DNA from: Prevotella sp.
Lineage (GTDB): Bacteria > Bacteroidota > Bacteroidia > Bacteroidales > Bacteroidaceae
Length of the DNA: 64,000 nt
Assembly (NCBI GenBank): GCA_017458005.1
Contig: JAFTGH010000011.1
Location: 1-64,000, forward strand
Reading direction: 5' to 3'
Every line of letters starts with the position of its first letter. Positions within the stretch are counted from its first letter, which is position 1. This document shows positions 38,321 through 62,332 of the stretch, one piece after another. Position numbers and translations under genes: made by a program. The notes under the pieces were generated by a model. The model was given only the letters and a program-made list of their open reading frames with translations, did no database searches and was not told the origin of the DNA.

Positions 38321-38323
38321 ATA

Positions 38324-39484: not shown

Positions 39485-39714
39485 AGAGAAGGATGATACA
39501 TGTCGTTTCTTAGTTATAATGGGTGGAAAAGGTGAAAAACTATGTGTCAAGGATTGATGTGGCCGTTTAATTCGTGCAGGCAGATCTTTAGTAGGTTAGT
39601 CCAAGCATATTATTAGGACACAGATATGGGACTGGTAACATGCTGGTCTCTCAAATAACAAACGGTTCAATACTAGTAGGCAGGTCTTTATTATGAAATT
39701 GTAAATACAAAAAT
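39485..39714. other. Intergenic stretch of 230 bases with a near-direct repeat
   Basis: No gene is seen. The segment contains AGGCAGATCTTTAGTAGG near 39580 and AGGCAGGTCTTTATTATG near 39681, two near-identical blocks about 100 bases apart, and no good -33/-7 pair. Confidence 0.4.
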
Positions 39715-40527: not shown

Positions 40528-40542
40528 AAAAGAGTAAAATAT

Positions 40543-41913: not shown

Positions 41914-41917
41914 CATT

Positions 41918-43890: not shown

Positions 43891-43891
43891 A

Positions 43892-44905: not shown

Positions 44906-44909
44906 TAAA

Positions 44910-45887: not shown

Positions 45888-45888
45888 G

Positions 45889-47415: not shown

Positions 47416-47425
47416 TCACAAACCC

Positions 47426-48559
47426 ATGTATTTATTATACGATTATCTGATAGTTGGCTCAGGCTTATATGGTGCCACGTTTGCACACTATGCCACGAAA
47501 CAAGGAAAAAAGTGTTTGGTTATAGACAAGCGCCCACAGTTGGGTGGTAATGTCTATTGCGAAAAGGTGGAAGGCATAAACGTTCATAAGTATGGAGCCC
47601 ACATCTTCCATACTAACAATAAAGAGGTTTGGAACTTTGTAAATAGCCTCGTGCCTTTTAACAGGTACACGAACAGTCCTGTTGCCAATTACCATGGCAA
47701 ACTCTTCAATCTGCCGTTCAACATGAATACCTTCTACCAGATGTGGGGTGTAACCACGCCTGAAGAGGCAACGGCAAAAATAGAAGAGCAAAAATCTGAA
47801 GCTGTAGCCAAGATGAAGGCTGATGGAGTAACAGAGCCTCGCAACCTTGAAGAGCAAGGTCTTTGCCTTGTGGGTAGAGATATCTTCGAGAAACTCATCA
47901 AGGAATATACAGAGAAGCAGTGGGGGCGACCTTGTAGTGAACTTCCTGCTTTCATCATTAAACGTTTGCCTGTGCGTTTGGTCTTTGACAACAATTATTT
48001 CAATGATGCATACCAAGGCATCCCAATAGGTGGTTACAACAAGTTAATCGATGCATTACTTGAAGGTGTGGAATGCAAAACCAACACGGATTTCTTTAAC
48101 ACAGAATACAGAGATTGGCACCAGTTTGCCAAGCAACTGGTATATACTGGCCCAATTGATGAGTATTTCGGGTACTGCTATGGCAAACTAGATTGGCGTA
48201 CGGTAAGTTTTAAGACCAAGGTTCTTGATGCCCCAAATTTCCAAGGTAATGCTGTGGTGAACTACACTTCCCATGAACAACCATATACCCGAGTCATTGA
48301 ACATAAGCATTTCGAAATGTTTGGCCAGGCCGTTTATGACTGCCCTAAGACTGTAGTTTCAGAAGAGTATTCCACCGAGTATAAAGAAGGAATGGAACCA
48401 TACTATCCGGTGAACGATGACAAGAATAACGATTTGGCTGATAAATATAGGACTTTGGCAGAGAGAGAGAAGGATGTGATATTTGGTGGTAGGCTGGCAG
48501 ACTATCGGTATTATGATATGGCACCAGTGGTAGAGAGTGTTTTGAGAAGGTTTCAGTAG
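47426..48559 (+). CDS. glf: UDP-galactopyranose mutase
   Basis: Flavoenzyme that interconverts UDP-galactopyranose and UDP-galactofuranose. From the ATG at 47426 it has 377 residues with the FAD-binding YDYLIVGSGLYGATFAHYA at the start, VIDKRPQLGGNVYCE near 33, YGAHIFHTNNKEVWNFV near 53, YTEKQWGRPCSELP near 152 and the late DYRYYDMAP. A start at 47393 would overlap wzx and add non-homologous residues. Its presence predicts a Galf residue in the glycan, although which of the transferases uses it is not clear. Confidence 0.95.
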   Translation: MYLLYDYLIVGSGLYGATFAHYATKQGKKCLVIDKRPQLGGNVYCEKVEGINVHKYGAHIFHTNNKEVWNFVNSLVPFNRYTNSPVANYHGKLFNLPFNMNTFYQMWGVTTPEEATAKIEEQKSEAVAKMKADGVTEPRNLEEQGLCLVGRDIFEKLIKEYTEKQWGRPCSELPAFIIKRLPVRLVFDNNYFNDAYQGIPIGGYNKLIDALLEGVECKTNTDFFNTEYRDWHQFAKQLVYTGPIDEYFGYCYGKLDWRTVSFKTKVLDAPNFQGNAVVNYTSHEQPYTRVIEHKHFEMFGQAVYDCPKTVVSEEYSTEYKEGMEPYYPVNDDKNNDLADKYRTLAEREKDVIFGGRLADYRYYDMAPVVESVLRRFQ

Positions 48560-48575
48560 TTTTACGAAAGAAACT

Positions 48576-49760
48576 ATGAAGAAAAATAAGCATACATTTC
48601 TGTATTTCTGCATTTTTATGGATTTCCTCTTATCCATGCAATTATGGATAGGGTGGCAGAATCGTATCTATATTTTCTATACTATTTTTGTTGTTTTGAT
48701 GACAGTTTATATCGTGGTCAAAAAGGTTAAGTTAAGTTTTGATAAGTCTAATCTGATACCCGCTCTGGTTTTTGTGATAGCATTTGGTATATATCGCCAA
48801 CCCAGTGTACTGATTTTTTCGATTCTGTCATTGACATCTCTGATTATTATTTTATTAAATGAAGAAGATCGTGTTTGTTGTTGGCGGTTTATATATAGAG
48901 GATTCAGCCTGCTGATGATTCCTTCTATAATCCTATTTTTACTGTACATAACAGTTGGCATTCCTTCATTAGGTACCATTGCTTTCTCTGATAGTGCGGA
49001 TTTGCCACAACGATACGTATTGAGATACAATTATATCTTCTATAATACAACTGTATTATATGACATGGGGCGTTTTAATGGTCCTTTTAATGAGCCGGGC
49101 CATTTGGGAATGATGGGTGCCTTTATGTTGTTTGCAGATGGGATGAATTTGAAGAAGAAGGAAAGTTGGCCAATTCTGCTGTCCGTTGTCTTGTCGCTTT
49201 CTTTGGCGGGGTATGTGTTGTTTTTGTTTGGATTGCTATTCACTCTCTATGCAAAAGGAAAGCTTAAAGTAAGTACTATAATAGGCATTGGTTTATTTAT
49301 TTTTGCTGGCTATTTGTTCGCAATCAACTACAATAATGGTGATAATATAATTAATGAAGAAATTTATTCACGGTTTGAGCGTGACGAAGATAAGGGTATT
49401 GTAGGCAACAATCGTATTACCGGTGACATGGAGTATTATTTTGAAACGATGTGGGATAATCGAGACCTGATACTTCATGGAGTGGACTGTCAGACGATGG
49501 AGTTCTTGCACTCAACAGGGTCTAGTGGTACTGGAATCCAAGCCTGGCTCATTGAATTTGGTGTGTTAGGTGTAATTCAGGCGTTTTTGTTTTATATAGT
49601 CTTTGCTTTGTATCAGAAAAACAAGAAAATGGCTTTCTTGTTTTTGTCTTTTGTAATTCTTATGTTTCTACAGAGGAGTTATCCATATTGGTACGCCTGG
49701 GTAATTTGTTATGTATATGGCCTCACATTAAGAAAAACCTCGTTAAAAAATATATTATGA
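48576..49760 (+). CDS. wzy: Wzy-type polysaccharide polymerase
   Basis: Polytopic membrane protein (394 residues, about 11 helices) with no named motif, as is normal for Wzy. A large loop near residues 140-180 contains YNTTVLYDMGRFNGPFNEPG and a second soluble loop near 265-315 (RFERDEDKGIVGNNRITGDM). This two-loop layout suits O-antigen polymerases, which join repeat units in the periplasm. The NEPGHLGMMG motif with a proline-glycine turn is similar to O-antigen ligase/polymerase (Wzy_C) proteins. It overlaps the next gene by four bases (ATGA). The assignment rests on topology and context. Confidence 0.75.
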   Translation: MKKNKHTFLYFCIFMDFLLSMQLWIGWQNRIYIFYTIFVVLMTVYIVVKKVKLSFDKSNLIPALVFVIAFGIYRQPSVLIFSILSLTSLIIILLNEEDRVCCWRFIYRGFSLLMIPSIILFLLYITVGIPSLGTIAFSDSADLPQRYVLRYNYIFYNTTVLYDMGRFNGPFNEPGHLGMMGAFMLFADGMNLKKKESWPILLSVVLSLSLAGYVLFLFGLLFTLYAKGKLKVSTIIGIGLFIFAGYLFAINYNNGDNIINEEIYSRFERDEDKGIVGNNRITGDMEYYFETMWDNRDLILHGVDCQTMEFLHSTGSSGTGIQAWLIEFGVLGVIQAFLFYIVFALYQKNKKMAFLFLSFVILMFLQRSYPYWYAWVICYVYGLTLRKTSLKNIL

Positions 49761-52405
49761 ATTCTAGCAATCAGATTACATACTCGATAATAATACCACA
49801 TTATAATATTCCATCTTTGTTGAAACGATGCCTACAATCGATACCTATGCGAACTGATGTTCAGGTTATTGTTGTGGATGACAAAAGTGATGAGAAATAT
49901 AAAACGGAACTAAGTAATATCAGCGAACTTTATCCGTGGGTATCGTTTATCTATTCTGATATAAATGGAGGAGGAGGGAGAGCACGGAATATTGGTTTGT
50001 CTGAAGCATCTGGGAAATATGTGTTGTTTGCTGATGCTGATGATGAATTTAGCCTTCAGTTGTCAGAGATATTTGATTACTTCGTGGCTGCCGACTACGA
50101 CCTTATTTTTTTTAATGTTGATACCATATTACAGGAATCACTTAAAAAATCGGGAATCCCGCATATGCTTTCTGAATGTATCGGTTTGTATAAATCCAAT
50201 CCCGAAGTGGCATTACTGCGTTTAAGATACATGTTTGGGGAACCGTGGTGCAAGATTATAAGAAAAGATCTAATAACAAGTCATCATATCAGATTCGATG
50301 AGATTGCTGTTCATAACGACACAACTTTTTCTTATTTGAGTGGTCATTATGCCAACAGTTTTTTCGTAGATGATAGAGTGGGCTATAAGTATTATATTCG
50401 CGAAGACTCTGTTAGCAAGAACAGGAGTGTCGAAAGAGATTATATAAAGATTAACGTATTTGGTCGAAGTTCTCGTTTCTTTTTAAATAATAATATTCCA
50501 CTTATTGAAGAGAGGCACTGGAAAGCATTGTATCATCTTGCAATGACAAAGGATAAAAAGAATTATTATGAAGGGATTAGAATGTTGCAGGACGTGGGAT
50601 ATGGCACGGATGATATCCTTAATGATTATTCTGATGCAGTATCAAGTTGGGGTTTTTTCACACCATTAAAATCTGCATGCCTTATACCAGATAAGAAAAT
50701 GAAGATTAAGTGCATAAATAGTTGGTTCAAGAGGCATGTACAATCTTTAATATGCAAAAATCATAGCGAAAATGTTTTTATTACGACCTTATTACTTGCC
50801 TTTCTTATGTCTTTAAATACTGTGACTTATGGACAGGAATGGGGCGGAGGTAAACAAGTAATAAAGGACACAAGTTATAATGAAAAGTTTGTCGCAGATT
50901 TATATCAAAAAGATTTTGAAGAAAGCGTTTTTATTTTTCATAGTACTAGAATTGATTCACTGACAGGAATTGAAAGTAAAGTAGATAATTATGAATCAAC
51001 GGATTTCATCAGTTTGAATAATATAACTAAGCTACGATATGAACTACCATACAGTGCGACTTCGGGGATAACCTATTATGATTCTTTGAAAAAAGTGATA
51101 CCCCAGGAGGCAGTTTTCTCAACACATGGTGGTGTATTTGAAGGTCAAGTTCCCAATAATGCTAAATATGTTCGTTTCAGTAGAAGAAATGATAGCGAGA
51201 GAAGTAAATCAATACGTTTATTTGAGACACCAATTAATGCAAACGTTATAGAAATCCCTGACTATGATGGCGATTCCAGAATAAAAGTAAGACGTTACCG
51301 GGTGTTTTCAAATAAAGAGTATTATGACGAAAATGAAAATGGCATTAATTACTATTCTGTCACAATGCCAAACCACCAGGTCTTATATGATGGAACGATA
51401 GTGGCTGTAGCAGAGCTTTCGGGGTCCAATAGGTATTTAGCACTCAAGAGATCAACAGATGGTGGCGTTACATGGGATGGAGATATACTATTTGGGAAAG
51501 AGAGACTTATTAATGGTCTAATAAAAGATAATGCTTCAGGAGGGAACCCTGTATTGCTGTACGATAAAAAAGGGGATGCTCTATTTTTATTCTATCAGCC
51601 AAGAAGTTACCGTAAATCGACAGATGGAGGACGCACATGGAGTGATAAATACAGCATTTCGCATCTGTTTGATGACAAATACAAAGGATTGCGCAATTAT
51701 GCTTCTCCGTGTAATGGGATTCAGTTATCCAACGGGGTTTTAGCGATAGCATATCGTATAGAAAAAATTGAAAATGCCTATGATCGTGTGTGTGTCTTGT
51801 TTTCGCGAGATGGCGGAAATACATGGGAGATTAGCCCCTCAACACCGATGACTGATACGAAAGGGAACGTTCTATTTGTTGACGAAACAGCTCTGGTTGA
51901 GTATAAAAAAAACACAGTAATGCTCAATTCTCGGGGGTTCACAGAACGAAATTTCGGAGAGCGCGTAAACAGAAGAGTATTTGTCCAAAATAAAGCTGGG
52001 GCGGAAAACCCACGAAGGTGGATTATTAAGGGCTGGGAGTTAGAACCCGAATCTGATTTAAAGCTTATGGATCCGGTTTGCCAAGGGTCATTAATTAAGG
52101 CTGATCTTTATGGGAAACAGTTTGGTGTTTTTGCAAATCTTTACACAGACGGTGTTACAAGGGAGAATTTATTAATAAGAGTATCATCAGACTTCATACA
52201 TTGGAGTCAGTGTTGCTTTATTTCCTTGCCAGGTGAAGTTGTCCATGGCTATTCTAGCATGTGTTGCATGAATAATGAACTGAGTATTATGACGGATGAC
52301 GATACTGGCGTGTTTTATTTGCCCTTTAATTACGAGTTAACAGATAAAATTATGCGTACATACGCAGAAAATTTAATCGCTTATAAAAAAAACAATAATG
52401 ATTAA
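49757..52405 (+). CDS. Fusion of a family 2 glycosyltransferase with a sialidase-like domain through a membrane segment
   Basis: 882 residues in one frame from the ATG at 49757. Residues 1-330: GT-A glycosyltransferase with SIIIPHYNIPSLLKRCLQSI, VVDDKSDEKY, GGGRARNIGLSEASG and FADADDEF. Residues 339-360 (NVFITTLLLAFLMSLNTVTY) look like a signal anchor. Residues about 365-880: a six-bladed sialidase fold with Asp boxes STDGGVTW (566), STDGGRTW (621) and SRDGGNTW (683). Candidate active-site residues are Glu 710 (DETALVEY), Arg 726 (NSRG), Arg 802 (TREN) and Tyr 832 (HGYSS). The usual first-strand RIP arginine is not obvious (VTMP). This would put the transferase in the cytoplasm and the sialidase-like part outside. 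I see no internal start or stop between the parts. Substrate of either half unknown. Confidence 0.75.
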   Translation: MNSSNQITYSIIIPHYNIPSLLKRCLQSIPMRTDVQVIVVDDKSDEKYKTELSNISELYPWVSFIYSDINGGGGRARNIGLSEASGKYVLFADADDEFSLQLSEIFDYFVAADYDLIFFNVDTILQESLKKSGIPHMLSECIGLYKSNPEVALLRLRYMFGEPWCKIIRKDLITSHHIRFDEIAVHNDTTFSYLSGHYANSFFVDDRVGYKYYIREDSVSKNRSVERDYIKINVFGRSSRFFLNNNIPLIEERHWKALYHLAMTKDKKNYYEGIRMLQDVGYGTDDILNDYSDAVSSWGFFTPLKSACLIPDKKMKIKCINSWFKRHVQSLICKNHSENVFITTLLLAFLMSLNTVTYGQEWGGGKQVIKDTSYNEKFVADLYQKDFEESVFIFHSTRIDSLTGIESKVDNYESTDFISLNNITKLRYELPYSATSGITYYDSLKKVIPQEAVFSTHGGVFEGQVPNNAKYVRFSRRNDSERSKSIRLFETPINANVIEIPDYDGDSRIKVRRYRVFSNKEYYDENENGINYYSVTMPNHQVLYDGTIVAVAELSGSNRYLALKRSTDGGVTWDGDILFGKERLINGLIKDNASGGNPVLLYDKKGDALFLFYQPRSYRKSTDGGRTWSDKYSISHLFDDKYKGLRNYASPCNGIQLSNGVLAIAYRIEKIENAYDRVCVLFSRDGGNTWEISPSTPMTDTKGNVLFVDETALVEYKKNTVMLNSRGFTERNFGERVNRRVFVQNKAGAENPRRWIIKGWELEPESDLKLMDPVCQGSLIKADLYGKQFGVFANLYTDGVTRENLLIRVSSDFIHWSQCCFISLPGEVVHGYSSMCCMNNELSIMTDDDTGVFYLPFNYELTDKIMRTYAENLIAYKKNNND

Positions 52406-53495
52406 AAGAATTGTATTTTGCGCCTTAAGAGATAACAACGGTGCAACAGGTGGCCCTGGAGGGGTTCTTTTTCTTCAGCAAAATGTTCTTGGGAAAGAAT
52501 TAGCAGATTTAAAGTGCGAATATTGGTTTAACCCATTTCGCATTCAAAGAGATGTCTTCCGGTTTAACCGGTTGGGGATGTTTTTCAAGATTTTGTTTAC
52601 CAAAGATACCTATTTTGTGGCCCATGAGGTTACAACAGGTAGTTTGCTGGCTTTACTTCATAAGCGGTATTCACTTATTTTCCATAACCAGGGCCCTTTG
52701 GTTGAGGAATATATAAACTTTGGGTCGAATGCTGATTCAAGAAAAATTAATATAATTAAGAGCAGGGAGAGAAGGGCTTTTATAAATGCGAATAGCGTTC
52801 ATTTTCCAAGTAATGGCGCAGTAGAAATGTATTTTAATAGCCAGCATGCATCATGCAAAAGAGCGGAAGTTACAGTGGGTAAGTCCTTGTTCAACATCAT
52901 ATTGCCCCAAACCGTTACAGAGCCTTCTAATTTCGATTTAAAAAAAGAAAATGATATCCTGACTTTTTTCTCTTTGGGCACTCTTACTCAAGCCAAGGGT
53001 CAAGACCAGTCTATGATATTTGTTGAGAATTTTTTGAATTTTTACAAAGGAAAAGTTCGTTATATAATTGTTGGGAAAGGTCCTTTAAAGAATGTACTAG
53101 ATGATGGATTAAAGAAATTAAGTGAAAGATATTCCTCATTTAGTTATCACCTAATTGATGCAGTACCACATCAAACGGTAATGTTTTTACATCAAATATC
53201 TGACATCTATATAATGCTTCATAGAATATCAATCTTTGATTTTGCCACCTTGGAAGCCATGTCCCAGGGTAATGCTATTGTTTTGAGTAAGGTTGGAGGT
53301 AATATAGATTTTGATAAGACGGATAACATCCTCTTTTCAGAGGACTATCAAGATAAAATGGATGAGTTTGCATATTTAGATTTCTTTTTTTACAAGAAAA
53401 AGAACAAAGAAGTTTTTGAAAAGTTTTTTTCCAAGACGGCTTTCCGTGAACAGTACATTTCATTTGTAAATGATGTAGTGAAATTGTCTCGATAG
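52398..53495 (+). CDS. GT4-like (GT-B fold) glycosyltransferase
   Basis: A 365-residue transferase of the GT-B type. The N-terminal half has GATGGPGGVLFLQQNVLG near residue 15 (donor- or acceptor-loop glycines) and LIFHNQGPLVEEYINF near 93. The C-terminal half has FFSLGTLTQAKGQDQSMIFV near 190, YIIVGKGPLKN near 223, and the family-4 EX7E-like region FDFATLEAMSQGNAIVLSKV near 276. It overlaps the preceding gene by eight bases. Sugar and linkage are unknown. Confidence 0.8.
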   Translation: MIKRIVFCALRDNNGATGGPGGVLFLQQNVLGKELADLKCEYWFNPFRIQRDVFRFNRLGMFFKILFTKDTYFVAHEVTTGSLLALLHKRYSLIFHNQGPLVEEYINFGSNADSRKINIIKSRERRAFINANSVHFPSNGAVEMYFNSQHASCKRAEVTVGKSLFNIILPQTVTEPSNFDLKKENDILTFFSLGTLTQAKGQDQSMIFVENFLNFYKGKVRYIIVGKGPLKNVLDDGLKKLSERYSSFSYHLIDAVPHQTVMFLHQISDIYIMLHRISIFDFATLEAMSQGNAIVLSKVGGNIDFDKTDNILFSEDYQDKMDEFAYLDFFFYKKKNKEVFEKFFSKTAFREQYISFVNDVVKLSR

Positions 53496-53498
53496 CAA

Positions 53499-54455
53499 AT
53501 GAATAATGTTTGTATAGTTAATAATTTGTATTGTCTCCTCCTTTATATGCTTATCAAAAAAAAGGAGGCATTTGATGATACATTATTCTTTTTCGACGAT
53601 GACATACCTAAGTCAATAGTCAATCAATTCCCTGATTCTGTGCAGTTTATAACCCCCAAAAGCAATTTTGCAAAATTTCTGTTCGTATTAAAGCTGAGAT
53701 TTTACAAATATAAATATAGATGCTTGAAAACAGCGGCAATATATGGTCAGGATAACTTGCTAATAACCTCTCCTCTAATAGGGAAACGTAAGATTTCAAT
53801 ACTTGAAGACGGAATGATGAATTATACTTATCAGCCCGTCAAAATACCATATGCCGTTATTAGAAGAATGGTTGGAGGCCCCCTATTCGCTCAAAATCCA
53901 TTGGGATATTCCGATTCTGTTGATAAAGTATATCTGACAGGGCTATCAACTATCCCTGATGGTATCCGGGAAAAGGTGCAAATCCTAAATCTACAAAGTA
54001 TGTGGGCAGAATGCACCTCTTATATCAAACAAAGAATTATTTCTGTTTTTGGTATTAACGGGGATATCCTTGATAGGTTTAGAGTCGTTGATTCAATATT
54101 GCTGACCCAACCACTTTCTGAGGATGGCGCTATATCTGAAAAAGAAAAAATTGAGCTTTACAAAGACCTGATAAAGGATAGTGTAGTAGCTATAAAGCCC
54201 CATCCAAGAGAGAAAACAGATTATAAGAGGTTCTTTCCGAAAGCGGTAATTCTTCCATCTGCCCTCCCTTTTGAGTTACTATCTCTTAATGGTATTATTT
54301 TTAAAGAGGTCAAGACGTTGTTCTCTACCGCTGCGCTATCGGTTCCAGGCAATCCCAAAATTAGTTTTGCTGGTACAAATGTCCATCCTTCGCTAGTGAA
54401 GCGCTGGGGAAATGTATCATATAAGGATGGTGTTTTAGTAAGAGAAAACGGTTAG
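53499..54455 (+). CDS. GT52-like sialyltransferase family protein
   Basis: A 318-residue protein whose C-terminal half resembles family 52 transferases (Lst-type alpha-2,3-sialyltransferases and relatives). It has SILLTQPLSEDGAISEKEK near 205, IKPHPREKTDY near 235 (the HP motif that binds CMP in related folds), PSALPFELLSLNG near 258 and TLFSTAALSVPGN near 276. The N-terminal half is poorly conserved (LFFFDDDIPKSIVNQF). The presence of a CMP-nonulosonate activating enzyme upstream supports a CMP-nonulosonate donor. The gene is AT-rich. Other GT52 proteins use different donors, so the sialyl/KDN call is provisional. Confidence 0.65.
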   Translation: MNNVCIVNNLYCLLLYMLIKKKEAFDDTLFFFDDDIPKSIVNQFPDSVQFITPKSNFAKFLFVLKLRFYKYKYRCLKTAAIYGQDNLLITSPLIGKRKISILEDGMMNYTYQPVKIPYAVIRRMVGGPLFAQNPLGYSDSVDKVYLTGLSTIPDGIREKVQILNLQSMWAECTSYIKQRIISVFGINGDILDRFRVVDSILLTQPLSEDGAISEKEKIELYKDLIKDSVVAIKPHPREKTDYKRFFPKAVILPSALPFELLSLNGIIFKEVKTLFSTAALSVPGNPKISFAGTNVHPSLVKRWGNVSYKDGVLVRENG

Positions 54456-54473: not shown

Positions 54474-55500
54474 ATGAATAAACAGGAATTACCCCCCCCG
54501 TCAAGGAGTTAATAAGCAGAGAGTTAACTATTTAGATGCGCTGAAATGCCTCGGTGTTCTGCTAGTCATAGAAGGTCACGTATGGAGCTTTGGGATGGGA
54601 ATAGAGACGTATGACTCGTTGTCGGGAATGATGCTCTACTCGTTTAATATGCCAATCTTCTTCTTCGTGAGTGGCTTCTTGGCATATAAGGAATCAATGG
54701 AAATAAAGGCGATTGGAAAGCGATTGTGGCAGAAATTCTTATTTCTGGTGATTCCGGCGGTGGTGTTCAAGGTGTTTATGGACTTGCTGCATGGCGCCAA
54801 TCCGGCACATTTCCTACAGGACGGGATGGGAGGGTATTGGTTTACAATCACCCTGTTTGAATGTTTCCTTATCTATTATCTGGTGGCACTCGTCATCAAA
54901 CGAAGTGGAATACAGATGATAATTATGGCTTTTATAGCTCTAGCAGGAATAGGACTGCTGAGTCTGTATGGAGAATTTGGCCCGAAGCTGTTGGATATGA
55001 ATCGACTGGCAAAGTATTTCCAATATTTTGTGTTTGGACTGTTGGCAATGAGGTATAAAGACCTGTATGAAAAGGCGATGAATAACGAATGGCTGAAAGC
55101 TGCAGGAATCCTGTCGTTCTTTGTGCTTTTGTTCATTATCAATCAGGTGTCCATGCCGGCCCCGGTATTTCATGCATTACGGGATTTGGTACTGAGGTAT
55201 TTGGGGACGTTTGTGGTAGTGTCGTTCTTTGTTTGTAGGAAGGAGGTTTTCGATACAGGTTCGCGGACTAACAAACTGCTAACCTCGATAGGACGGAAGT
55301 CGCTTGCCATCTATCTTTTGCAATACTTCTTTATTCCGAGTTTCATGGCTTGGCCAGAGTGGATTGCTGGTATGGATGGTTTTACTGTTCATGTTATTTC
55401 ATTTGCATACACCATTGTTATAACGGCAGTATGTCTGTCGTTTATCGAATTGCTTTCTAATAGCACGTTGATCAAGAAATATGCATTAGGACAAAAATAA
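54474..55500 (+). pseudogene. Acyltransferase 3 family O-acyltransferase, currently out of frame at a C8 tract
   Basis: Integral-membrane acyltransferase (about ten helices) of the type that O-acetylates sugars of surface polymers. The conserved N-terminus NYLDALKCLGVLLVIEGHVW is read from about 54524, ahead of the first in-frame ATG at 54595 (M in FGMGIETYD). The natural ATG at 54474 reads MNKQELPP into a run of eight C (54492-54499) and then stops at 54510-54512. With seven C, or ten, the ATG joins the long frame exactly: MNKQELPPRQGVNKQRVNYL. This looks like a slipped-strand switch set to OFF in this assembly. Helices include MPIFFFVSGFLAY, FLVIPAVVFKVFM and LAIYLLQYFFIPSF. Starting at 54595 would drop the conserved His motif. 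Confidence 0.8.
54492..54499 (+). repeat. C8 homopolymer tract, probable phase-variation switch
   Basis: Eight consecutive C residues six codons after the ATG at 54474. One fewer or two more restores the frame of the acyltransferase. Two more 8-base tracts, both G8, occur at 58639 and 61826. Confidence 0.75.
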
Positions 55501-55523
55501 CTTCATTTTTTATTTATTTCATT

Positions 55524-56930
55524 ATGTTCAATTTATTTAAAACGAAAGGCTTGAGCAAGCACGAGCTTGCGACAAGGCGCATCTGGAGCTTCGTAGCGTT
55601 GGTGCTAGGGGTTCTGGTGATGGGAGTTTTAGGCTGGTTTCCCAGCAATTCATTGTCAATCCTTAGTCCGTTGAATGGACTGATAGGATGGTTCGCTGTC
55701 TTCTGCGTAGTGTTCTGTATCATCAACCTCTTCAATAAGGAGAGAGTGCCGGGTGAAAAGGAGTTTAGTAACTCTGCTTTCATCAACCTGCTCTTTACCT
55801 TGGGTATGGGTGTTGGTATTATGGTGTATGCCTATAATGAGGCAGCACAACTCTCTGCGTACAGTGATGTGAGGAATCCGATTGGACTTACGCTCAATCA
55901 CTGGATTCTGATTCCCTGGTGTTTCTATGTAACGTTTGCCATCTTTGAGATTTACGACGAGAAGTATAATCTGCTTCCCAAATGGCTGAGATTGTTTAAA
56001 ACGTATCTCTATGGCTTATTGATGATGCTGGGTATCGGTACCTCATTCGCATTGGGTGTCATTACCATTTCTGGAGCATGCAAACATATCTACGGAATAG
56101 ATATACCTTCCTATGCGTTGGTAGTGATCTTAGGGTCGTTGGTGACCTTCTCACTGCTTCGTGGCGTTCACAGGGGTATGAAAGTGTTCGCAAAGATTTC
56201 TATGTACATTTTGTACGCGTACATCTTTATTATGATTATTGTTGCCCCTTCTGATACCATGGTAGTAGGAGCAAAGGCAGTTGGTTCATTCATTGGAGAC
56301 TGGTTCTATAACAATGTATATACAGGCAGAGCAGTACAACAAGATTGGACTATATACTATTGGATTTGGTGGATTTCCTGGTGCGCTTTTGTGGCACCTT
56401 TTATCAAGGCCATATCTAAAGGTAGGACTATTCGTGAGATAGTTTTCTATACTGTGGCCGTACCTTCTATTTTGATAGCAGTATTTATGATTCTGGGCAA
56501 CAACACTGGTATGCATCTTCTTGCAGAAGGAACACCCGTTGCAGAATTGCCATACGTGGCTATTAATGTTCATTGGATTATGCCGCTTATCTTTGTCATT
56601 TTGATGTCAATGTTCTATATCACATCCTCTGACTCACAGTCGTATGCTATGGACCAGACCATTTCTTACGGAAGCAAAACCCCAGTGGTTCATAGAAAGA
56701 TTATGTGGGTGATGTTGGAGGTGCTCTTTGTTACGGTTCTGCTGCTTGCGGGTTCTAACAGTATTTCCGCACTGCAGGGACTAAGTTTCCTTTTTGTACC
56801 ATTCATGATTCTGGTTGCATTAGTGTATGTGTTCTTGATTGTGAGACATATCATTGACAAGAACAAGAAGGATGGTTCAAAAGAAGAAGTAAATATCGCG
56901 GAGATGATGACAAAATATCCTCGCCCGTAA
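55524..56930 (+). CDS. BCCT family transporter
   Basis: Betaine/choline/carnitine-type secondary transporter with about 12 membrane helices in 468 residues. The family motif is clear: YYWIWWISWCAFVAPFIKAI followed by SKGRTIREIVFYTV near residue 275, and GMGVGIMVYAYNEAAQLSAY near 93 corresponds to the glycine-rich helix 3 motif. The late ITSSDSQSYAMDQTIS is typical of the C-terminal half. It might import or export a quaternary amine or an amino-acid-like osmolyte. It lies between the acyltransferase and an outer-membrane protein gene, inside a polysaccharide locus, where such a transporter is unusual. Confidence 0.85.
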   Translation: MFNLFKTKGLSKHELATRRIWSFVALVLGVLVMGVLGWFPSNSLSILSPLNGLIGWFAVFCVVFCIINLFNKERVPGEKEFSNSAFINLLFTLGMGVGIMVYAYNEAAQLSAYSDVRNPIGLTLNHWILIPWCFYVTFAIFEIYDEKYNLLPKWLRLFKTYLYGLLMMLGIGTSFALGVITISGACKHIYGIDIPSYALVVILGSLVTFSLLRGVHRGMKVFAKISMYILYAYIFIMIIVAPSDTMVVGAKAVGSFIGDWFYNNVYTGRAVQQDWTIYYWIWWISWCAFVAPFIKAISKGRTIREIVFYTVAVPSILIAVFMILGNNTGMHLLAEGTPVAELPYVAINVHWIMPLIFVILMSMFYITSSDSQSYAMDQTISYGSKTPVVHRKIMWVMLEVLFVTVLLLAGSNSISALQGLSFLFVPFMILVALVYVFLIVRHIIDKNKKDGSKEEVNIAEMMTKYPRP

Positions 56931-56970
56931 ACAAAATAACAGATAAGAAAACAAAAAAGAAGAACATAAA

Positions 56971-57624
56971 ATGAAAAAGATAATAATTACAATAATTGCT
57001 GTTACTCTATCAGTAGCAGCAAGTGCTCAGGTACCTTATTTCGCAGGTACAGTTGGTAACGGCAAACTTTATGGTTATACATCATTAAAGGCTCGTCCGG
57101 GCATTAACGCACAAGAAACATATACAACATTCCAATATGGAACTAGTGCTCATACGGCTGCAGGTCTGGACTTATACACAGGAGTTGGTTGTAACTACCT
57201 TGGAGTCTTGTTCAGAACAGGCTATAAGTTTAATCAGTGGTTTGGTATTGGTGGTCAATTAACCCCTTCATTTGATTTAAGTAATAATATGAAGTTCAGT
57301 TATCTTACAGCTGCTTTATATATGAATGGCTCCATCACAAAAGATGGCAAACTTTTCTGGTGCAGCAATACATGGTGGGGCGTGAACGACGGTGCAGACA
57401 ATACTATTACCAACTGGGAGTACCTTGGTTATTCTATTCCTTTCAAGAATGGACATAGCATTACCCCAATGGTAGGTGCAATCCATTCTTGGAAGTTTGA
57501 CCAGGATGTGGATATTGCCGCTGGATTCTACTACAATATCAAGAATTGGGACTTCTATGTATGGGGCAACGATTTCTTGAAAGACCATCCGAGAGTGGTG
57601 GCCGGCATAGACTTTACGTTCTAA
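56971..57624 (+). CDS. Secreted outer-membrane beta-barrel-like protein
   Basis: A 217-residue exported protein with signal peptide MKKIIITIIAVTLSVAASAQ. The mature part is rich in alternating polar and aromatic strands (YTTFQYGTSAHTAAGLDLYT, GVLFRTGYKFNQWFGIGGQL, AAGFYYNIKNWDFYVWG) and ends in VVAGIDFTF, the phenylalanine-ended last strand that BAM recognises. About eight to ten strands fit a small outer-membrane barrel. It starts 40 bases after the BCCT gene. Function unknown; it could be an outer-membrane partner of the transporter, which is inference. Confidence 0.7.
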   Translation: MKKIIITIIAVTLSVAASAQVPYFAGTVGNGKLYGYTSLKARPGINAQETYTTFQYGTSAHTAAGLDLYTGVGCNYLGVLFRTGYKFNQWFGIGGQLTPSFDLSNNMKFSYLTAALYMNGSITKDGKLFWCSNTWWGVNDGADNTITNWEYLGYSIPFKNGHSITPMVGAIHSWKFDQDVDIAAGFYYNIKNWDFYVWGNDFLKDHPRVVAGIDFTF

Positions 57625-57634
57625 CATTCATCAT

Positions 57635-58765
57635 ATGATAAATAAGGAGATTTATAGACATAAGCATATTTGCTTAGTAGAAGATCATTACAACCCCCTC
57701 GCCATTATTCGTAGTCTTGGCGAGGAGGGTATTAAACCTATAGTATTACTCTGTAGTAAATCGCCCCATCTTGTTCCTTATAGCAAATATGTTGGGGAAT
57801 TGCACATGTTTAGCTCCATCCAAGAAGGGCTGGATTATATGATGCTACATTATGGGGCTGAACCGCTGAAACCATTTGTGTATAATGGAAGTGATGATAT
57901 TACCTTATTGTTAGATAATCATTATGACGAGCTAAAAGACCATTTCTATTTTACGAATGGTCAGGGTAGTATGAAAAAATACCTGCAGAAATATGACATA
58001 ACCCAGTTCGCAATTCAATGTGGTATCAATATCCCCAAAGAAGAACTATTGAAAGTAGGAGAATTTCCTACGTCATTGAAATATCCTGTTATTACTAAAG
58101 CTGCAACCTCTGCTGGTGGAGGTACATGGAAAGATCAAAGTTTTATCTGTGAGGATGAAAAAGCTCTTAAGGAAGCCTTTTCGAAAATAAAAGCTGATAC
58201 AATCTTGGTGCAAGAGTATATTCGGAAAAAGAACGAACTATGCATTGATGGGATAAGCATTAATGGGGGAGAACAGGTATTTATGCCCTATGGGTGTTCT
58301 TACTATCGATTCCCCAAAGGTAGCTATGGTAATTATATGTATTTCACTCCTTTTAAAGACAAGGAGTTAACGACAAAAATAACCAATGTTTTAAGAGAAG
58401 CCCAGTATACAGGCCCTTTTTGTATAGAGTTCTTGGTAGGCCCTGATGATAACCTATACTTTTTGGAGGTGAATTTCCGGCACTCTGGCTGGGGCTATGC
58501 GTTCACATACGGTGGTTTTAATCTACCTGTAAGATGGGCATCCGCTACTCTCGATAATGAAATTATGCTCGATGATTTTAAGTATCTCGATAGGTTTGAC
58601 GTGATGCAGGAGTTGTCGGACTTCAAGGATAGTGTACTGGGGGGGGCGGTTTCTTTGTGGCAATGGGTAAAAGATGTAAGGCAGTGTGATTGCTTCTTAT
58701 ACTATAATAAAAAAGACCCAAAGCCGTTTTGGCATGTATTAAGAAAAAAATTATTGCGGTTCTGA
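57635..58765 (+). CDS. ATP-grasp ligase-like protein 1, with a G8 tract
   Basis: A 376-residue ATP-grasp protein of the CarB/biotin-carboxylase type. It has a pre-ATP-grasp domain (LVEDHYNPLAIIRSLGEEGI near 15), then KYPVITKAATSAGGGTWKDQ near 150 (ATP-binding lysine and glycine loop), VQEYIRKKNELCIDGIS near 193 and the metal site CIEFLVGPDDNLYFLEVNFR near 268 with the acidic pair before RHSGWG. Such enzymes often join an amino acid or another carboxylate to an amine. A run of eight G lies at 58639-58646, about residue 336, and is in frame now; slippage would truncate the last 40 residues. A paralogue follows 49 bases later. The reaction is unknown. Confidence 0.75.
   Translation: MINKEIYRHKHICLVEDHYNPLAIIRSLGEEGIKPIVLLCSKSPHLVPYSKYVGELHMFSSIQEGLDYMMLHYGAEPLKPFVYNGSDDITLLLDNHYDELKDHFYFTNGQGSMKKYLQKYDITQFAIQCGINIPKEELLKVGEFPTSLKYPVITKAATSAGGGTWKDQSFICEDEKALKEAFSKIKADTILVQEYIRKKNELCIDGISINGGEQVFMPYGCSYYRFPKGSYGNYMYFTPFKDKELTTKITNVLREAQYTGPFCIEFLVGPDDNLYFLEVNFRHSGWGYAFTYGGFNLPVRWASATLDNEIMLDDFKYLDRFDVMQELSDFKDSVLGGAVSLWQWVKDVRQCDCFLYYNKKDPKPFWHVLRKKLLRF
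58639..58646 (+). repeat. G8 homopolymer tract inside the first ATP-grasp gene
   Basis: Eight G in the reading frame (VLGGAVSLW). In frame as assembled. A change of one base would shift the frame near residue 336. Confidence 0.65.
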
Positions 58766-58814
58766 TATCAGAACTTTACGTTGTTGATGTCAGAAGTACA
58801 TCAACATTATAATT

Positions 58815-59981
58815 ATGAACAAGGTAATCATTTTAGGAGGCGACCACTACAATGCATTAGGCATCGTAAGGAGTTTCGGTGTGAACGGGATAAAGCCATA
58901 CGGGATTCTCACCACCACATCGAAGAGAAAGAAGGATAATTTCTGTTATCTTTCAACGTATTGGGAGAAGACTTGGTTTGCCCTTTCTGATGCGGAGGCG
59001 ATAGATATTCTTCTGAGTGAGTTTAAGGACGAAGATGAAAAACCAGTGTTGGTTCCATCGTCGGACGGGTTAGCATACGAGATCGATAGAAGACTTGATG
59101 AGTTGAATCGTTTTTTTATTGCGCCAAGTATCAATGGAAAGCAAGGAGAGATTGCCCGGTTGATGGATAAGAAGAATCAGACGGAATGGGCTCATAAGTT
59201 GGGGTTGAAAACGGCAAAGACCTGGTGCGTAGAGCTGAACGAGCAGTTGGATTCTTTCTATAATGAAGTCGTGTTCCCCTGTATTGCAAAACCGGTTATC
59301 AGCTCTGAAGGGCATAAAACGGACATTACAAGGTGCGAAACGCTAGAATCTCTGAAAAGCCTTATGGAGGAATTGCGAGGAAAGGGGTATCACAGGATTT
59401 TAGTACAGGAGTTTCTTAATAAAGATTTCGAAGCAGAGTTGTTTGGATGTATAGCAGAACATACGGATAGAATTCCTTATCTGTTTTCAAAGCATGTAAG
59501 AGAGTGGCCTCCAGTTGGAGGCTCAGTGTCGTGCCATCAGTTTCTTAATGATGAGAAACTTGTTAAACAGGCAGAGCACTTCCTTCGCCAGATTCGCGAA
59601 TATGGCTATCGAGGGAATATTGATATTGAACTTTTTGTTATTAATGGTGAACTTGTGTTGAATGAGGTGAACTTCCGCAACAGCGGAGATGTGTATGCTT
59701 GTTTCAGTCAGAATGTGCATTATCCTGTTTTCAGTTTACTAGATATGATAGGAGAGGATACGTCACAGATGAATTCTGACTATACGACAGACCACTATGC
59801 CATGAATGAAGCCACCGATTTTAGACATGTGCTGTATCGTGGAATGAAATTGTGTGAATGGTGGCGCTATTGGAAAAAGAGCCGCGACTATGCATATTGG
59901 TTTTCTGGCGACATGAAGCCGGTTTGGAGAAAATATAAGTACTTCCTCAAAAAAATGATATCCAAGAAAAATGAAGACTAA
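58815..59981 (+). CDS. ATP-grasp ligase-like protein 2
   Basis: Paralogue of the preceding protein, 388 residues. It starts KVIILGGDHYNALGIVRSFG and has FPCIAKPVISSEGHKTDI near 154, VQEFLNKDFEAELFG near 197 and IDIELFVINGELVLNEVNFR near 272 with the RNSGD substrate loop. Organisation and length match protein 1, so the two arose by duplication; their ends differ (this one ends in FLKKMISKKNED). Two ATP-grasp enzymes in a row could add two different groups to a sugar or to each other's product. The reading overlaps the deacetylase-like gene by 11 bases. The product is unknown. Confidence 0.75.
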   Translation: MNKVIILGGDHYNALGIVRSFGVNGIKPYGILTTTSKRKKDNFCYLSTYWEKTWFALSDAEAIDILLSEFKDEDEKPVLVPSSDGLAYEIDRRLDELNRFFIAPSINGKQGEIARLMDKKNQTEWAHKLGLKTAKTWCVELNEQLDSFYNEVVFPCIAKPVISSEGHKTDITRCETLESLKSLMEELRGKGYHRILVQEFLNKDFEAELFGCIAEHTDRIPYLFSKHVREWPPVGGSVSCHQFLNDEKLVKQAEHFLRQIREYGYRGNIDIELFVINGELVLNEVNFRNSGDVYACFSQNVHYPVFSLLDMIGEDTSQMNSDYTTDHYAMNEATDFRHVLYRGMKLCEWWRYWKKSRDYAYWFSGDMKPVWRKYKYFLKKMISKKNED

Positions 59982-60696
59982 ATATTTAATTCGCCTTGAC
60001 GATGCCTGCCCCTATATGGACGGGGATAAGTGGCAGCGGATGGAGGATATATTGGATAAATATGGGGTGAAGCCTTTGGTGGGTATTATCCCTGCTAATG
60101 CTGACCCCAAAACAATGATAGAGCCGGAAGACCCGGAGTTTTGGGAGAAGGCACATCGATGGGTTGATAAAGGTTGGGAAATGGCTTTACATGGGTTTGA
60201 CCATGTGTGTGTGACAAATAATGGAGGTATTAATCCAGTTCATCGCAGAAGCGAGTTTGCGGGCTTGACTTATGAAGAACAAGCAAGGAAAATAGGAAAC
60301 GGTTATGAGGTGCTGAAAGGGCATGGCATAGAGCCTTCATACTTCTTTGCACCGAGCCATACGTTTGATGAGGTGACAATTAAGGCTATCAAGGATCATA
60401 CGCCCCTCAGAAAGATAAGCGATTTGATAGCCACAAAACCTTATAAGAGAGATGAGTTCACGATAGTACCTTGCCAGATGGGAAAACTACGTGAAATGCC
60501 AATCTCAGGGTATTGGTGCGCTTGTTACCATCCGAATATCATGAAGGACGAAGAATTTGTGGCACTGGAGGGTTTCTTAAAGGAACATCAGCAGGATTTC
60601 CTATCATTTGAAGAATTGCCGGAAGCTGGCTGCAGGTCATTCAATGATAAGTTGCTGTCATTTGCTTATTACACATTAAGACGCATCAAAGGATGA
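59971..60696 (+). CDS. DUF2334-type polysaccharide deacetylase-like protein
   Basis: A 241-residue protein of the polysaccharide deacetylase superfamily: the start YLIRLDDACPYMDGDKWQRM carries the metal-binding aspartate pair (LDDA), GWEMALHGFDHVCVTNNG near 68 the HxxxD-like metal site and SYFFAPSHTFDEVTIKAI near 118 the second motif. DUF2334 members hydrolyse amides or esters. It could remove an N-acetyl group to expose an amine for the ATP-grasp enzymes, an attractive idea but not shown. It overlaps the next gene by four bases (ATGA). No signal peptide, so it probably acts in the cytoplasm on sugar nucleotides or lipid-linked intermediates. Confidence 0.75.
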   Translation: MKTKYLIRLDDACPYMDGDKWQRMEDILDKYGVKPLVGIIPANADPKTMIEPEDPEFWEKAHRWVDKGWEMALHGFDHVCVTNNGGINPVHRRSEFAGLTYEEQARKIGNGYEVLKGHGIEPSYFFAPSHTFDEVTIKAIKDHTPLRKISDLIATKPYKRDEFTIVPCQMGKLREMPISGYWCACYHPNIMKDEEFVALEGFLKEHQQDFLSFEELPEAGCRSFNDKLLSFAYYTLRRIKG

Positions 60697-61745
60697 GGGT
60701 ACTGCATGTCATTTCATCGTTGGAAATAGGAGGCGCACAAAGATTGCTTTCTGACCTGTTGCCTTTGCAAAAGCAGCAGGGCTTAGATGTGTCATTACTT
60801 GTTTTGCGAGTGGAAGATACTGCTTTTAGCAAGAAGGTGGAAAATGCAGGTGTACCAATTATCTCATTAGATGTTAAGAGTTTTAGAAATCCTTTTCTGG
60901 CTTTCACGGTAAGGTCTATAATAAAGGATTATGATGTGGTTCATGCTCATCTTGTACATTCATTGTATATTTGCTCATTGGCTGCACGAGGGTTGAAGAC
61001 CAAGTTAGTTTATACAGAACATTCCACGTCTAATAATAGACGAGACAAGTCTTATGTGCGACCAATAGAGAAATTCATCTATGGTAGATACGCCAAACTG
61101 ATTAGTATCAGCCAACAAACTCAGGATGCGCTTCAAAATTGGTTACAGTCGAACGATGAACGGTTTGTTGTAATTTATAATGGTGTCGATACGAAAGCCT
61201 TTACCTCCATTCATCGAGAAGTATTTGCAATGTCGTTGATTATGGTGAGTCGCTTTGCTTCATCCAAGGATCAGGAAACGGTTATACGTGCGATGCAGTT
61301 TGTCAAAAAGGAAGCCACTTTGCGGTTAGTTGGTGATGGAGAGAATCTTGAACATTGCAAACAAGTGGCAAAAGAATGTGGCGTGGAAGACCGTGTGGAA
61401 TTCCTTGGCGCACGAGCAGATGTGGCAAATTTGATAGCAGAATCGTATATTGGGATTCAGTCTTCAAAATGGGAGGGTTTTGGTCTGACTGCTGTTGAGA
61501 TAATGGCTTGCGGTAAACCAGTGATTGCCACAAATGTTGATGGGCTAAAACAGGTTGTTGAGGGAGCAGGTGAGCTGTTCACAGTTGGTGACGTTGAGGC
61601 TTTAGCAAGTATTGTAAATGGTATATTATACGACAAGAACCGCTATGAGAAAATGTCAAATTTATCGAAAGACAGAGCTCTAAGATATGACATTTCGAAG
61701 ACCGCGATAAAGTATATAGACACATATAAACAGATTTTATCATGA
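60693..61745 (+). CDS. GT4 glycosyltransferase
   Basis: A 350-residue GT-B transferase. The N-terminal domain has VISSLEIGGAQRLLSDLLPL near residue 5, typical of family 4, and HAHLVHSLYICSLAA near 87. The C-terminal domain has VSRFASSKDQETVIRAM near 183, LRLVGDGENLEHCKQVAKEC near 208, GARADVANLIAES near 236 and EGFGLTAVEIMACGKPVIAT near 261, the EX7E motif with the catalytic glutamates. The overlap with the previous gene and the four-base overlap with the next place it in the decoration operon. Donor and linkage unknown. Confidence 0.88.
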   Translation: MRVLHVISSLEIGGAQRLLSDLLPLQKQQGLDVSLLVLRVEDTAFSKKVENAGVPIISLDVKSFRNPFLAFTVRSIIKDYDVVHAHLVHSLYICSLAARGLKTKLVYTEHSTSNNRRDKSYVRPIEKFIYGRYAKLISISQQTQDALQNWLQSNDERFVVIYNGVDTKAFTSIHREVFAMSLIMVSRFASSKDQETVIRAMQFVKKEATLRLVGDGENLEHCKQVAKECGVEDRVEFLGARADVANLIAESYIGIQSSKWEGFGLTAVEIMACGKPVIATNVDGLKQVVEGAGELFTVGDVEALASIVNGILYDKNRYEKMSNLSKDRALRYDISKTAIKYIDTYKQILS

Positions 61746-62332
61746 ATAAACGTAAGTTTAGGGATATTCTTAGGTTCGCTGAAGCCTGCCTTTTCTCGTG
61801 GTTATATATGCCTCATTTGATAGTTGGGGGGGGCAATTTTTATGTAAAAAGTGATGTCTATGTCTTATCTAAACAGATAAGTATTTCGTTGCCGTCACTA
61901 TTAATGCTTTTATACCTTCTGCACAATAATAGATACTTCAGGTCTCTTTTTTATTATAGAATAGGTCCTATTGCAACTTTAATAATTGGATGGTATAGAC
62001 CTGGAGATAGGTATTTTCAGATTTCTTATTCAACAAAGATAGGTAAGAGTATGCTGATAGCTCATCCGTATGCCACTATTCTAAATGCTGAGAGTATTGG
62101 TGATAATTTCAGTTGTATTCATAGTACCACTCTAGGAGCAACAGACAGAGGGCGTCCTATTATAGGCAATAATGTGAGTTTGGGTGCAAATGTCACGATA
62201 ATAGGTCCAGTACATGTCGGTAATAATGTAATTATAGGTGCCGGTAGTGTTGTCGTGAAAGATGTGCCAAGCAATTGTGTGGTGGCAGGGAATCCTGCGA
62301 AGGAGATAAGGAGGTATAAAGAACCTTTATAA
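61742..62332 (+). CDS. Serine O-acetyltransferase-like hexapeptide protein, with a G8 tract
   Basis: Left-handed beta-helix acetyltransferase of about 196 residues, CysE-like. The late YSTKIGKSMLIAHPYATILN then AESIGDNFSCIHSTTLGATD have repeated isoleucine-patch strands, NNVSLGANVTIIGPVHVGNN and VIIGAGSVVVKDVPSNCVVA follow, and GNPAKEIRRYKEPL closes the coil. It would acetylate a sugar or serine from acetyl-CoA. Residues 28-34 (VGGGNFY) are encoded by eight G at 61826-61833, in frame as assembled; slippage would abolish the product. In this context it is a glycan or precursor acetyltransferase rather than a cysteine-biosynthesis enzyme; that is inference. Confidence 0.8.
   Translation: MNKRKFRDILRFAEACLFSWLYMPHLIVGGGNFYVKSDVYVLSKQISISLPSLLMLLYLLHNNRYFRSLFYYRIGPIATLIIGWYRPGDRYFQISYSTKIGKSMLIAHPYATILNAESIGDNFSCIHSTTLGATDRGRPIIGNNVSLGANVTIIGPVHVGNNVIIGAGSVVVKDVPSNCVVAGNPAKEIRRYKEPL
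61826..61833 (+). repeat. G8 homopolymer tract inside the acetyltransferase gene
   Basis: Eight G within IVGGGNF, in frame in this assembly. One base lost or gained would truncate the protein near residue 30. Confidence 0.65.

What the first reader, a model, noticed from the sequence alone, without database searches (positions are those of the whole stretch)
54474..61833. Three 8-base homopolymer tracts in decoration genes, one switched OFF
Seen directly: C8 at 54492-54499 puts the acyltransferase out of frame with its ATG (one base fewer restores MNKQELPPRQGVNKQRVNYL), and G8 tracts lie at 58639 in an ATP-grasp gene and at 61826 in the acetyltransferase gene, both in frame. Long G/C runs are a known substrate for slipped-strand mispairing. 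Together they could give up to eight glycan variants from one locus in a population. The three genes are all predicted to modify the polymer rather than build it.
Basis: partly seen in the sequence, partly recalled or inferred. Interest (0 to 1): 0.8.

Follow-up and report, generated by a model that had tools for sequence, protein, structure and literature searches.

The report
Poly-G switches in glycan-decoration genes
A bacterium related to gut species carries runs of eight G or C bases inside three genes predicted to decorate its surface sugar coat, one of them out of frame as assembled, and related species carry such runs in the same kinds of gene, which suggests an on/off lottery for the coat like those known in Campylobacter and Neisseria.

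Summary
The three tracts are real, and they are the only G/C runs of 8 or more in the window. C8 at 54492-54499 separates the ATG at 54474 from the acyltransferase frame, and the first ATG/GTG/TTG in that frame lies inside the domain. G8 at 58639 (ATP-grasp) and G8 at 61826 (hexapeptide acetyltransferase) are in frame. The bare count is unremarkable: 10 of 100 shuffles give three or more. The clustering is less so: 3 of the genome's 11 such tracts lie in 7.3 kb (scan P about 0.003).

Relatives give the stronger evidence. Among 139 sites with 9 or more G/C in this genus, Acyl_transf_3 is the commonest family hit: 8, with about 0.3 expected (P about 1e-9). Four of the 8 are out of frame at the tract. 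The window's acetyltransferase G8 recurs at the same linker in two of its three closest homologues. Another acetyltransferase shared by two species has a tract of eight in both, in frame in one and out of frame in the other. The ATP-grasp tract has no counterpart at 25 homologous sites.

Best reading: slipped-strand phase variation of glycan decoration, a known mechanism for which I found no report in this group. Tract-length variation within a strain could not be tested.

The parts
54474..54512 (+). Start codon and 12-residue reading frame that the present tract length gives (OFF product)
54492..54499 (+). C8 tract, beginning 18 bases downstream of the A of the ATG; acyltransferase out of frame
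54478..55500 (+). Open frame of the Acyl_transf_3 acyltransferase (domain match 54526-55443); first canonical start in frame only at 54595, inside the domain
55524..56930 (+). BCCT (betaine/carnitine/choline) transporter, part of a conserved cassette with the next two genes
56971..57624 (+). 217-aa protein, signal-peptide-like start by eye, no Pfam family, conserved in the cassette
57635..58765 (+). ATP-grasp protein carrying a G8 tract near its C-terminus
58639..58646 (+). G8 tract, in frame, codons of residues 335-338 of 376; not present at 25 homologous sites
58815..59981 (+). Second ATP-grasp protein; G313 and G316 also have an ATP-grasp gene in front of DUF2334-GT4-hexapeptide, but theirs match the first ATP-grasp (57635) better, at 24% and 30%
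59971..60696 (+). DUF2334 / polysaccharide-deacetylase-like protein
60693..61745 (+). GT4 glycosyltransferase (its counterpart in G316 carries a G/C tract of 9)
61742..62332 (+). Hexapeptide-repeat acetyltransferase (closest NCBIfam EpsC/WcaB/CysE, all under cut-off)
61826..61833 (+). G8 tract, in frame (Gly-Gly-Gly of the PHLIV-GGG linker); recurs at the same linker in G313 and G316
37445..54455 (+). Upstream part of the polysaccharide locus: NeuB, cytidylyltransferase-HAD, nucleotidyl transferase, DegT aminotransferase, epimerases, glycosyltransferases, UDP-galactopyranose mutase, GT52/polysialyltransferase-like

Best explanation
The tracts are contingency switches. During replication, G/C runs inside the open reading frames of glycan-modifying enzymes gain or lose a base by slipped-strand mispairing, which moves the gene in or out of frame, so a population holds cells with differently acyl/acetyl-decorated surface polysaccharide. 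In this assembly the Acyl_transf_3 gene is in the OFF phase and the hexapeptide acetyltransferase in the ON phase. The ATP-grasp gene is open and is the least certain member. Shown: tracts, frames, clustering, enrichment of tracts in this acyltransferase family across the genus, recurrence at one linker in three species, and a frame difference at one orthologous tract between species. Inferred: slippage itself, reversibility, and the chemical effect on the glycan.
For: Only 11 tracts of 8 or more in 3.05 Mb, 3 of them in 7.3 kb of one polysaccharide locus. In 60 congeneric genomes 53 have a tract of 9 or more. Of 139 tract sites read, 100 gave a usable open piece and 8 of these are Acyl_transf_3, the most frequent family, against 0.31 expected. 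In a control of 95 pieces at fixed points no family had more than 2, and Acyl_transf_3 was not among the 25 families shown. The eight, each confirmed by Pfam, come from six genomes: 4 in frame (L084, L101, L117, L151), 4 out of frame at the tract (L116, L147, L155, L178). L155 was labelled in frame by my script and is counted out because its frame stops 18 codons after the tract and its domain match ends at profile 207 of 326. L147, whose acyltransferase was not found by a search with the window's at E 1e-8, has the window's layout: ATG, tract starting 19 bases on (C9), then the domain, out of frame. Hexapeptide acetyltransferase: G8 in the same linker in L253/L283 and L254/L281, about 65% identical in protein, although GGG is the least used Gly codon (14%). 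An orthologous acetyltransferase in G006 and G316 has a tract of eight in both, in frame in one, out of frame in the other (alignment). Published scans of Campylobacter count G/C tracts of 7 or more, and isolate variation was on record for all C. jejuni NCTC 11168 tracts of 8 or more (PMC6321876, passages).
Against: No reads, no second strain and no expression data: tract-length variation within a population is unseen. Eight is near the short end; 9-10 dominate in Campylobacter. The raw count of three is within reach of shuffled sequence (10 of 100). The ATP-grasp tract is absent at 25 homologous sites, and the roe-deer relative L016 has no G/C run of 6 or more in 16.5 kb. One of the three closest hexapeptide homologues (L252, G013) has no tract. 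Most of the 139 genus sites lie in other genes, in no evident gene or in repeats. Of four acyltransferases with tracts of eight met outside the survey, two are out of frame (window, L069) and two in frame (both in L290).
Confidence: 0.74

Rival explanations
1. The acyltransferase is a decaying pseudogene, or its tract was miscounted in assembly, and the other two tracts are ordinary coding sequence.
For: Only one genome of the species was available; the frame is broken at one point and homopolymers are where assemblies err (general knowledge). The number of tracts alone is not rare under shuffling.
Against: The rest of the frame is clean: 340 codons with no stop. Breaks of the same kind, behind the start codon or inside the tract, recur in other acyltransferases of other species. 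The tract in the acetyltransferase recurs in two other species.
Confidence: 0.16
2. The tracts act in expression rather than in replication: RNA polymerase or ribosome slippage at the run gives a fixed minority of full-length protein in every cell.
For: Homopolymers of this length can cause transcriptional slippage (general knowledge); the OFF frame is otherwise intact.
Against: The orthologous tracts in G006 and G316 differ in the DNA itself and change frame. Of eight tract-bearing Acyl_transf_3 genes four are in frame and four out, a scatter expected from changing tract length.
Confidence: 0.07
3. The recurrence is compositional or inherited: the Gly-Gly-Gly linker is simply conserved, and acyltransferases sit in loci with loose selection where runs can grow.
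For: The hexapeptide genes of the window, G313 and G316 share a gene neighbourhood, so shared descent of the tract is possible. Most genus tracts are not in acyltransferases.
Against: The linker is otherwise variable and is not Gly-Gly-Gly in six of the eight other loci with a near-full-length homologue (L252, L255-L259). GGG is the least used Gly codon, and only 3 of 84 Gly-Gly pairs in 37 window genes are GGG-GGG, two of them being the tracts themselves. Some acyltransferase tracts are poly-C and some poly-G on the coding strand, so they arose more than once.
Confidence: 0.14

Closest known systems
Campylobacter jejuni poly-G phasome (capsule, LOS and flagellin-glycan modification genes)
   Same: G/C mononucleotide tracts, mostly inside reading frames; cut-off 7 or more; genes found in both states (PMC6321876, passages). 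A homopolymeric-tract gene modifies the flagellin glycan (PMC3068675, search listing with start of abstract). Clustering in capsule and LOS loci is recalled.
   Different: Different phylum; 11 tracts of 8 or more in this genome, nine of them exactly 8; [quoted passage not shown]), against 5% of tracts in Campylobacter.
Phase-variable OafA/NeuO/OatWY O-acetylation (Haemophilus, E. coli K1, Neisseria)
   Same: A single O-acyl/acetyl-transferase of the capsule or LOS that is phase variable (oafA: passage of PMC11868660; NeuO: start of abstract of PMC3046976; OatWY recalled).
   Different: Those are single genes with other repeat types (recalled); here mononucleotide tracts lie in several modification genes of one locus.
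Bacteroides fragilis capsule variation
   Same: Bacteroidales surface polysaccharide diversified within a strain. PMC3090145 (one passage) reports a frameshift by one extra C in a run of four in an acetyltransferase-related gene of the PSI/9 locus and suggests slippage.
   Different: The mechanism named for Bacteroides in the review passages is invertible DNA (PMC11868660); no long homopolymer switch is described in the passages seen.

Membership tests
Simple-sequence-repeat (translational) phase-variable gene | Mononucleotide G/C tract at or above the length shown to slip (7 or more in PhasomeIt) | tested here: met
   Three tracts of 8; cut-off from PMC6321876.
Simple-sequence-repeat (translational) phase-variable gene | Tract inside the reading frame so that length change alters the frame | tested here: met
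Simple-sequence-repeat (translational) phase-variable gene | Tract length varies among isolates or within a population | not testable with these tools
   No reads, one genome of the species; the ATP-grasp gene has no nucleotide-level relative in 60 genomes apart from itself and one 34-bp match.
Simple-sequence-repeat (translational) phase-variable gene | Both ON and OFF alleles exist in nature at an orthologous tract | tested here: inconclusive
   Yes for another acetyltransferase, G006 in frame and G316 out of frame, between species only; not seen for the window's own genes.
Simple-sequence-repeat (translational) phase-variable gene | Reversible phenotypic switching at high rate | not tested
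   Needs culture.
Acyl_transf_3 (PF01757) membrane acyltransferase | Full-length domain match over the curated cut-off | tested here: met
   Profile 2-324 of 326, 87.9 bits, cut-off 31.
Hexapeptide-repeat acetyltransferase | Hexapeptide repeat match over the curated cut-off | tested here: met
   PF00132 36.1 bits, cut-off 27; of the 25 NCBIfam families shown none reached its cut-off.

The most novel reading that the evidence does not exclude
This genus of Bacteroidales (Prevotella-like by inference) has a genus-wide poly-G phasome. Mononucleotide switches recur in surface acyl- and acetyltransferases and also sit in sensor/regulator genes (both tracts of 9 in this genome split one) and in the signal peptides of a SusC-like and a secreted protein. 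The group would then vary both its coat and its glycan foraging by slippage, alongside or instead of DNA inversion.
Probability: 0.5. Interest if true: 0.75.

Novelty: new member of a known kind. Interest (0 to 1): 0.62.

Why it matters
Gut Bacteroidales are known for switching capsules by DNA inversion. A second, mutation-based switch on the decoration of the coat would change how strain identity, phage sensitivity and immune recognition are read from assemblies, because genes that look broken could be OFF alleles. It can be checked in existing read sets, since the predicted sites are single positions.

Tried and rejected
Literature: eight searches of the held library listed no paper whose title or abstract start describes long homopolymer switches in Prevotella or other Bacteroidales. 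This covers open-licence papers only; I opened passages of three and none in full. The long-repeat survey of Mrazek et al., named inside PMC11868660, was not read.

Viral copies of the acyltransferase and ATP-grasp genes: none in viral contigs. Tract-length variants among congeners by nucleotide comparison of the loci held gave only repeats, identical lengths or tract-free matches, and no orthologue of the window's tracts; the G006/G316/G127 comparison came later, from loci fetched. A first home-made acyltransferase profile was wrong because locus orientation was ignored; its redone form found only four of the sequences, so identities rest on Pfam. The pattern was badly chosen (its last letter also allows G), and its counts are not used.

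Rows left out: the tract listing is capped; the rows shown come from 29 of the 60 genomes. Of the roughly 150 rows I did not fetch seven G121 and one G073 place (six of the eight within 400 bases of the start of their contig), three places of G117:C7, and G000:C34 (already seen as L003). L100 belongs to a thirtieth genome whose rows were not shown. Of the 139 sites in the 130 loci, 39 were dropped before the Pfam tally: open piece under 80 residues, the five sites of the contig-end locus L150, and the G000 duplicate L092. The 139 include non-independent sites: one sequence present in three genomes (L074, L079, L103) and a repeat family in G121 (L157-L162). The control call shows only 25 of 174 families, so Acyl_transf_3 could be present once there. 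The enrichment uses rounded genome sizes, the 29 genomes and an assumed 1,080 bp per gene.

Full report
Observation. The window holds exactly three G/C runs of eight or more: C8 at 54492-54499, G8 at 58639-58646 and G8 at 61826-61833. Reading from ATG 54474, the present C8 gives a 12-residue peptide and a stop. The acyltransferase lies in another frame that is open for 340 codons. Its Acyl_transf_3 match starts at 54526 (profile 2-324), while the first ATG/GTG/TTG in that frame is at 54595, where the match begins only at profile position 38. So in this assembly the gene is OFF: the first canonical start in its frame would lose the beginning of the domain. The ATP-grasp gene (57635-58765) and the hexapeptide acetyltransferase (61742-62332) are open through their tracts.

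Chance. The number three is not impressive alone: 100 dinucleotide shuffles of the window give a mean of 0.91 and ten reach three. Real G/C runs are rarer than in shuffles: the whole 3.05-Mb genome has 11 distinct ones of eight or more, about 0.23 per 64 kb. Three of 11 within 7,342 bp has a scan probability of 0.0028. Twenty hand-spaced 20-kb regions from five congeners held none, which is weak, as about 1.4 would be expected at this genome's density.

Setting. The locus is a polysaccharide cluster with NeuB, a cytidylyltransferase-HAD protein, nucleotidyl transferase, DegT aminotransferase, epimerases, UDP-galactopyranose mutase, several glycosyltransferases and a GT52/polysialyltransferase-like gene. 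All three tract genes belong to its downstream part. Two are acyl/acetyl-transferase families. The ATP-grasp gene sits in a cassette with a BCCT transporter and a 217-aa protein that recurs in a roe-deer Bacteroides MAG (64, 71 and 57% identity) and, with a more distant BCCT, in five congeneric loci (two of these BCCT genes checked by Pfam).

Genus test. Tracts of nine or more occur in 53 of 60 congeneric genomes drawn at 90% completeness or more. I read 139 tract sites in 130 loci, taken from the capped listing. One hundred gave an open piece of 80 residues or more that was neither from the contig-end locus L150 nor the G000 duplicate, and Acyl_transf_3 was the commonest family, 8 of 100; no other family exceeded 2. 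The same procedure at 100 fixed points of control regions gave 95 pieces with no family above 2, and Acyl_transf_3 not among the 25 of 174 families shown. With 200 such genes in the 98 Mb of the 29 genomes used for the estimate, 0.31 tracts were expected; the Poisson probability of 8 is about 1e-9, and of 6, counting each genome once, about 1e-6. The eight are L084, L101, L116, L117, L147, L151, L155 and L178, each confirmed by Pfam. In four the frame is open across the tract (L084, L101, L117, L151), in four it breaks there (L116, L147, L155, L178). For L155 my script said in frame; I count it out because the frame stops 18 codons after the tract, another frame is open for 147 codons beyond it, and the domain match ends at profile 207 of 326.

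Acyltransferases with tracts of exactly eight were met outside this survey in four cases: the window's and L069 are out of frame, two in L290 (G008) are in frame. L147 has the same anatomy as the window's gene although a search with the window's protein did not find it at E 1e-8: ATG, a tract starting 19 bases on (C9; 18 in the window), then the domain, out of frame. In L084 and L069 the run in the same N-terminal place is poly-G. The layout therefore arose more than once.

Acetyltransferase test. The window's hexapeptide gene has near-full-length homologues at 50-65% identity in eight congeneric loci by tblastn. Two of the three closest, in G313 and G316, carry a G8 at the same linker, in frame; the third (G013) does not; in five more distant loci (L255-L259) the linker has another sequence. 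One of these, from G008, has a G8 elsewhere in the same gene, in frame (L285). GGG is the least used Gly codon in 37 window genes (14%), and only 3 of 84 Gly-Gly pairs are GGG-GGG, two of them being the tracts themselves. In G313 and G316 the gene ends a row of the same kinds of gene as in the window: ATP-grasp, DUF2334, GT4, hexapeptide; identities are 24, 56, 65 and 65% in G313 and 30, 51, 35 and 65% in G316, the ATP-grasp being closer to 57635 than to its positional counterpart 58815. In G316 the GT4 gene carries a tract of nine, in frame. A different acetyltransferase is shared by G006 and G316, with a tract of eight at the same place in both: in frame in G006, out of frame in G316 (alignment). 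A third one has N-terminal tracts of different length in G006 (eight, out of frame) and G127 (nine, with an ATG running into the tract). The G006 contig C107 alone holds five tracts of nine or more: in a hexapeptide gene, a gene with a weak GNAT match under its cut-off, an MBOAT acyltransferase, a sugar-transfer-type ATP-grasp and an Acyl_transf_3 gene.

ATP-grasp. At 25 homologous sites (E 1e-40 or better, one only partly aligned), including L016 at 64% identity, there is no run like the G8, and the residues there are variable. A shift would affect roughly the last 40 of 376 residues, behind the ATP-grasp match (130-282) but including a tryptophan shared by 24 of the 25. This gene may be a young switch or a bystander.

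Mechanism. The best-supported reading is replication slippage at coding G/C tracts that turns coat-modifying acyl/acetyl-transferases on and off. The DNA anatomy, the genus-wide enrichment and the frame difference between species are shown. Slippage within a strain, its rate and the change in the glycan are inferred. Campylobacter work uses a cut-off of seven G/C and states that isolate variability was on record for all C. jejuni NCTC 11168 tracts of eight or more (PMC6321876, passages), so eight is sufficient in at least one organism.

Known or new. The mechanism is known from Campylobacter, Neisseria, Haemophilus and E. coli K1. For Bacteroides the review passages I saw speak of invertible DNA (PMC11868660), and one B. 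fragilis paper suggests slippage in a short C run of an acetyltransferase-related gene (PMC3090145, one passage). Eight searches listed nothing closer. I file it as a new member of a known kind.

Noticed in passing
L001:1501 (G000:C17:95213) and L003:1501 (G000:C34:7749): The only two G/C tracts of nine in the own genome each lie where a sensor/regulator gene changes frame (Y_Y_Y-HisKA-HATPase piece, then receiver-AraC piece; propeller piece, then propeller-Y_Y_Y-AraC piece), as if carbohydrate-sensing regulators were phase variable too.
   Followed up: partly
L012:1501 (G000:C53:5368), L010:1501 (G000:C52:134410); in relatives L179, L199: Tracts of eight lie in what look by eye like the signal peptides of a SusC-like protein and of a protein without Pfam family, in frame; in two relatives a tract near such an end is out of frame (no Pfam family for L179 and L199).
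   Followed up: partly
55524-58765; L016, L055, L056, L057, L058, L068: A cassette of BCCT transporter, 217-aa protein and ATP-grasp is conserved, while the BCCT itself varies (about 25% or 71% identity). It may import a betaine- or carnitine-like carboxylate and ligate it to the glycan (function is my guess).
   Followed up: partly
L008:1501 (G000:C45:96099): A fourth tract of eight on the same contig, about 34 kb downstream, at the 3' end of a WecA/MraY-like sugar-phosphate transferase gene, where a shift would change the C-terminus.
   Followed up: no
L157-L162 (G121): Several poly-G runs in one genome belong to a dispersed repeat with no evident gene.
   Followed up: no
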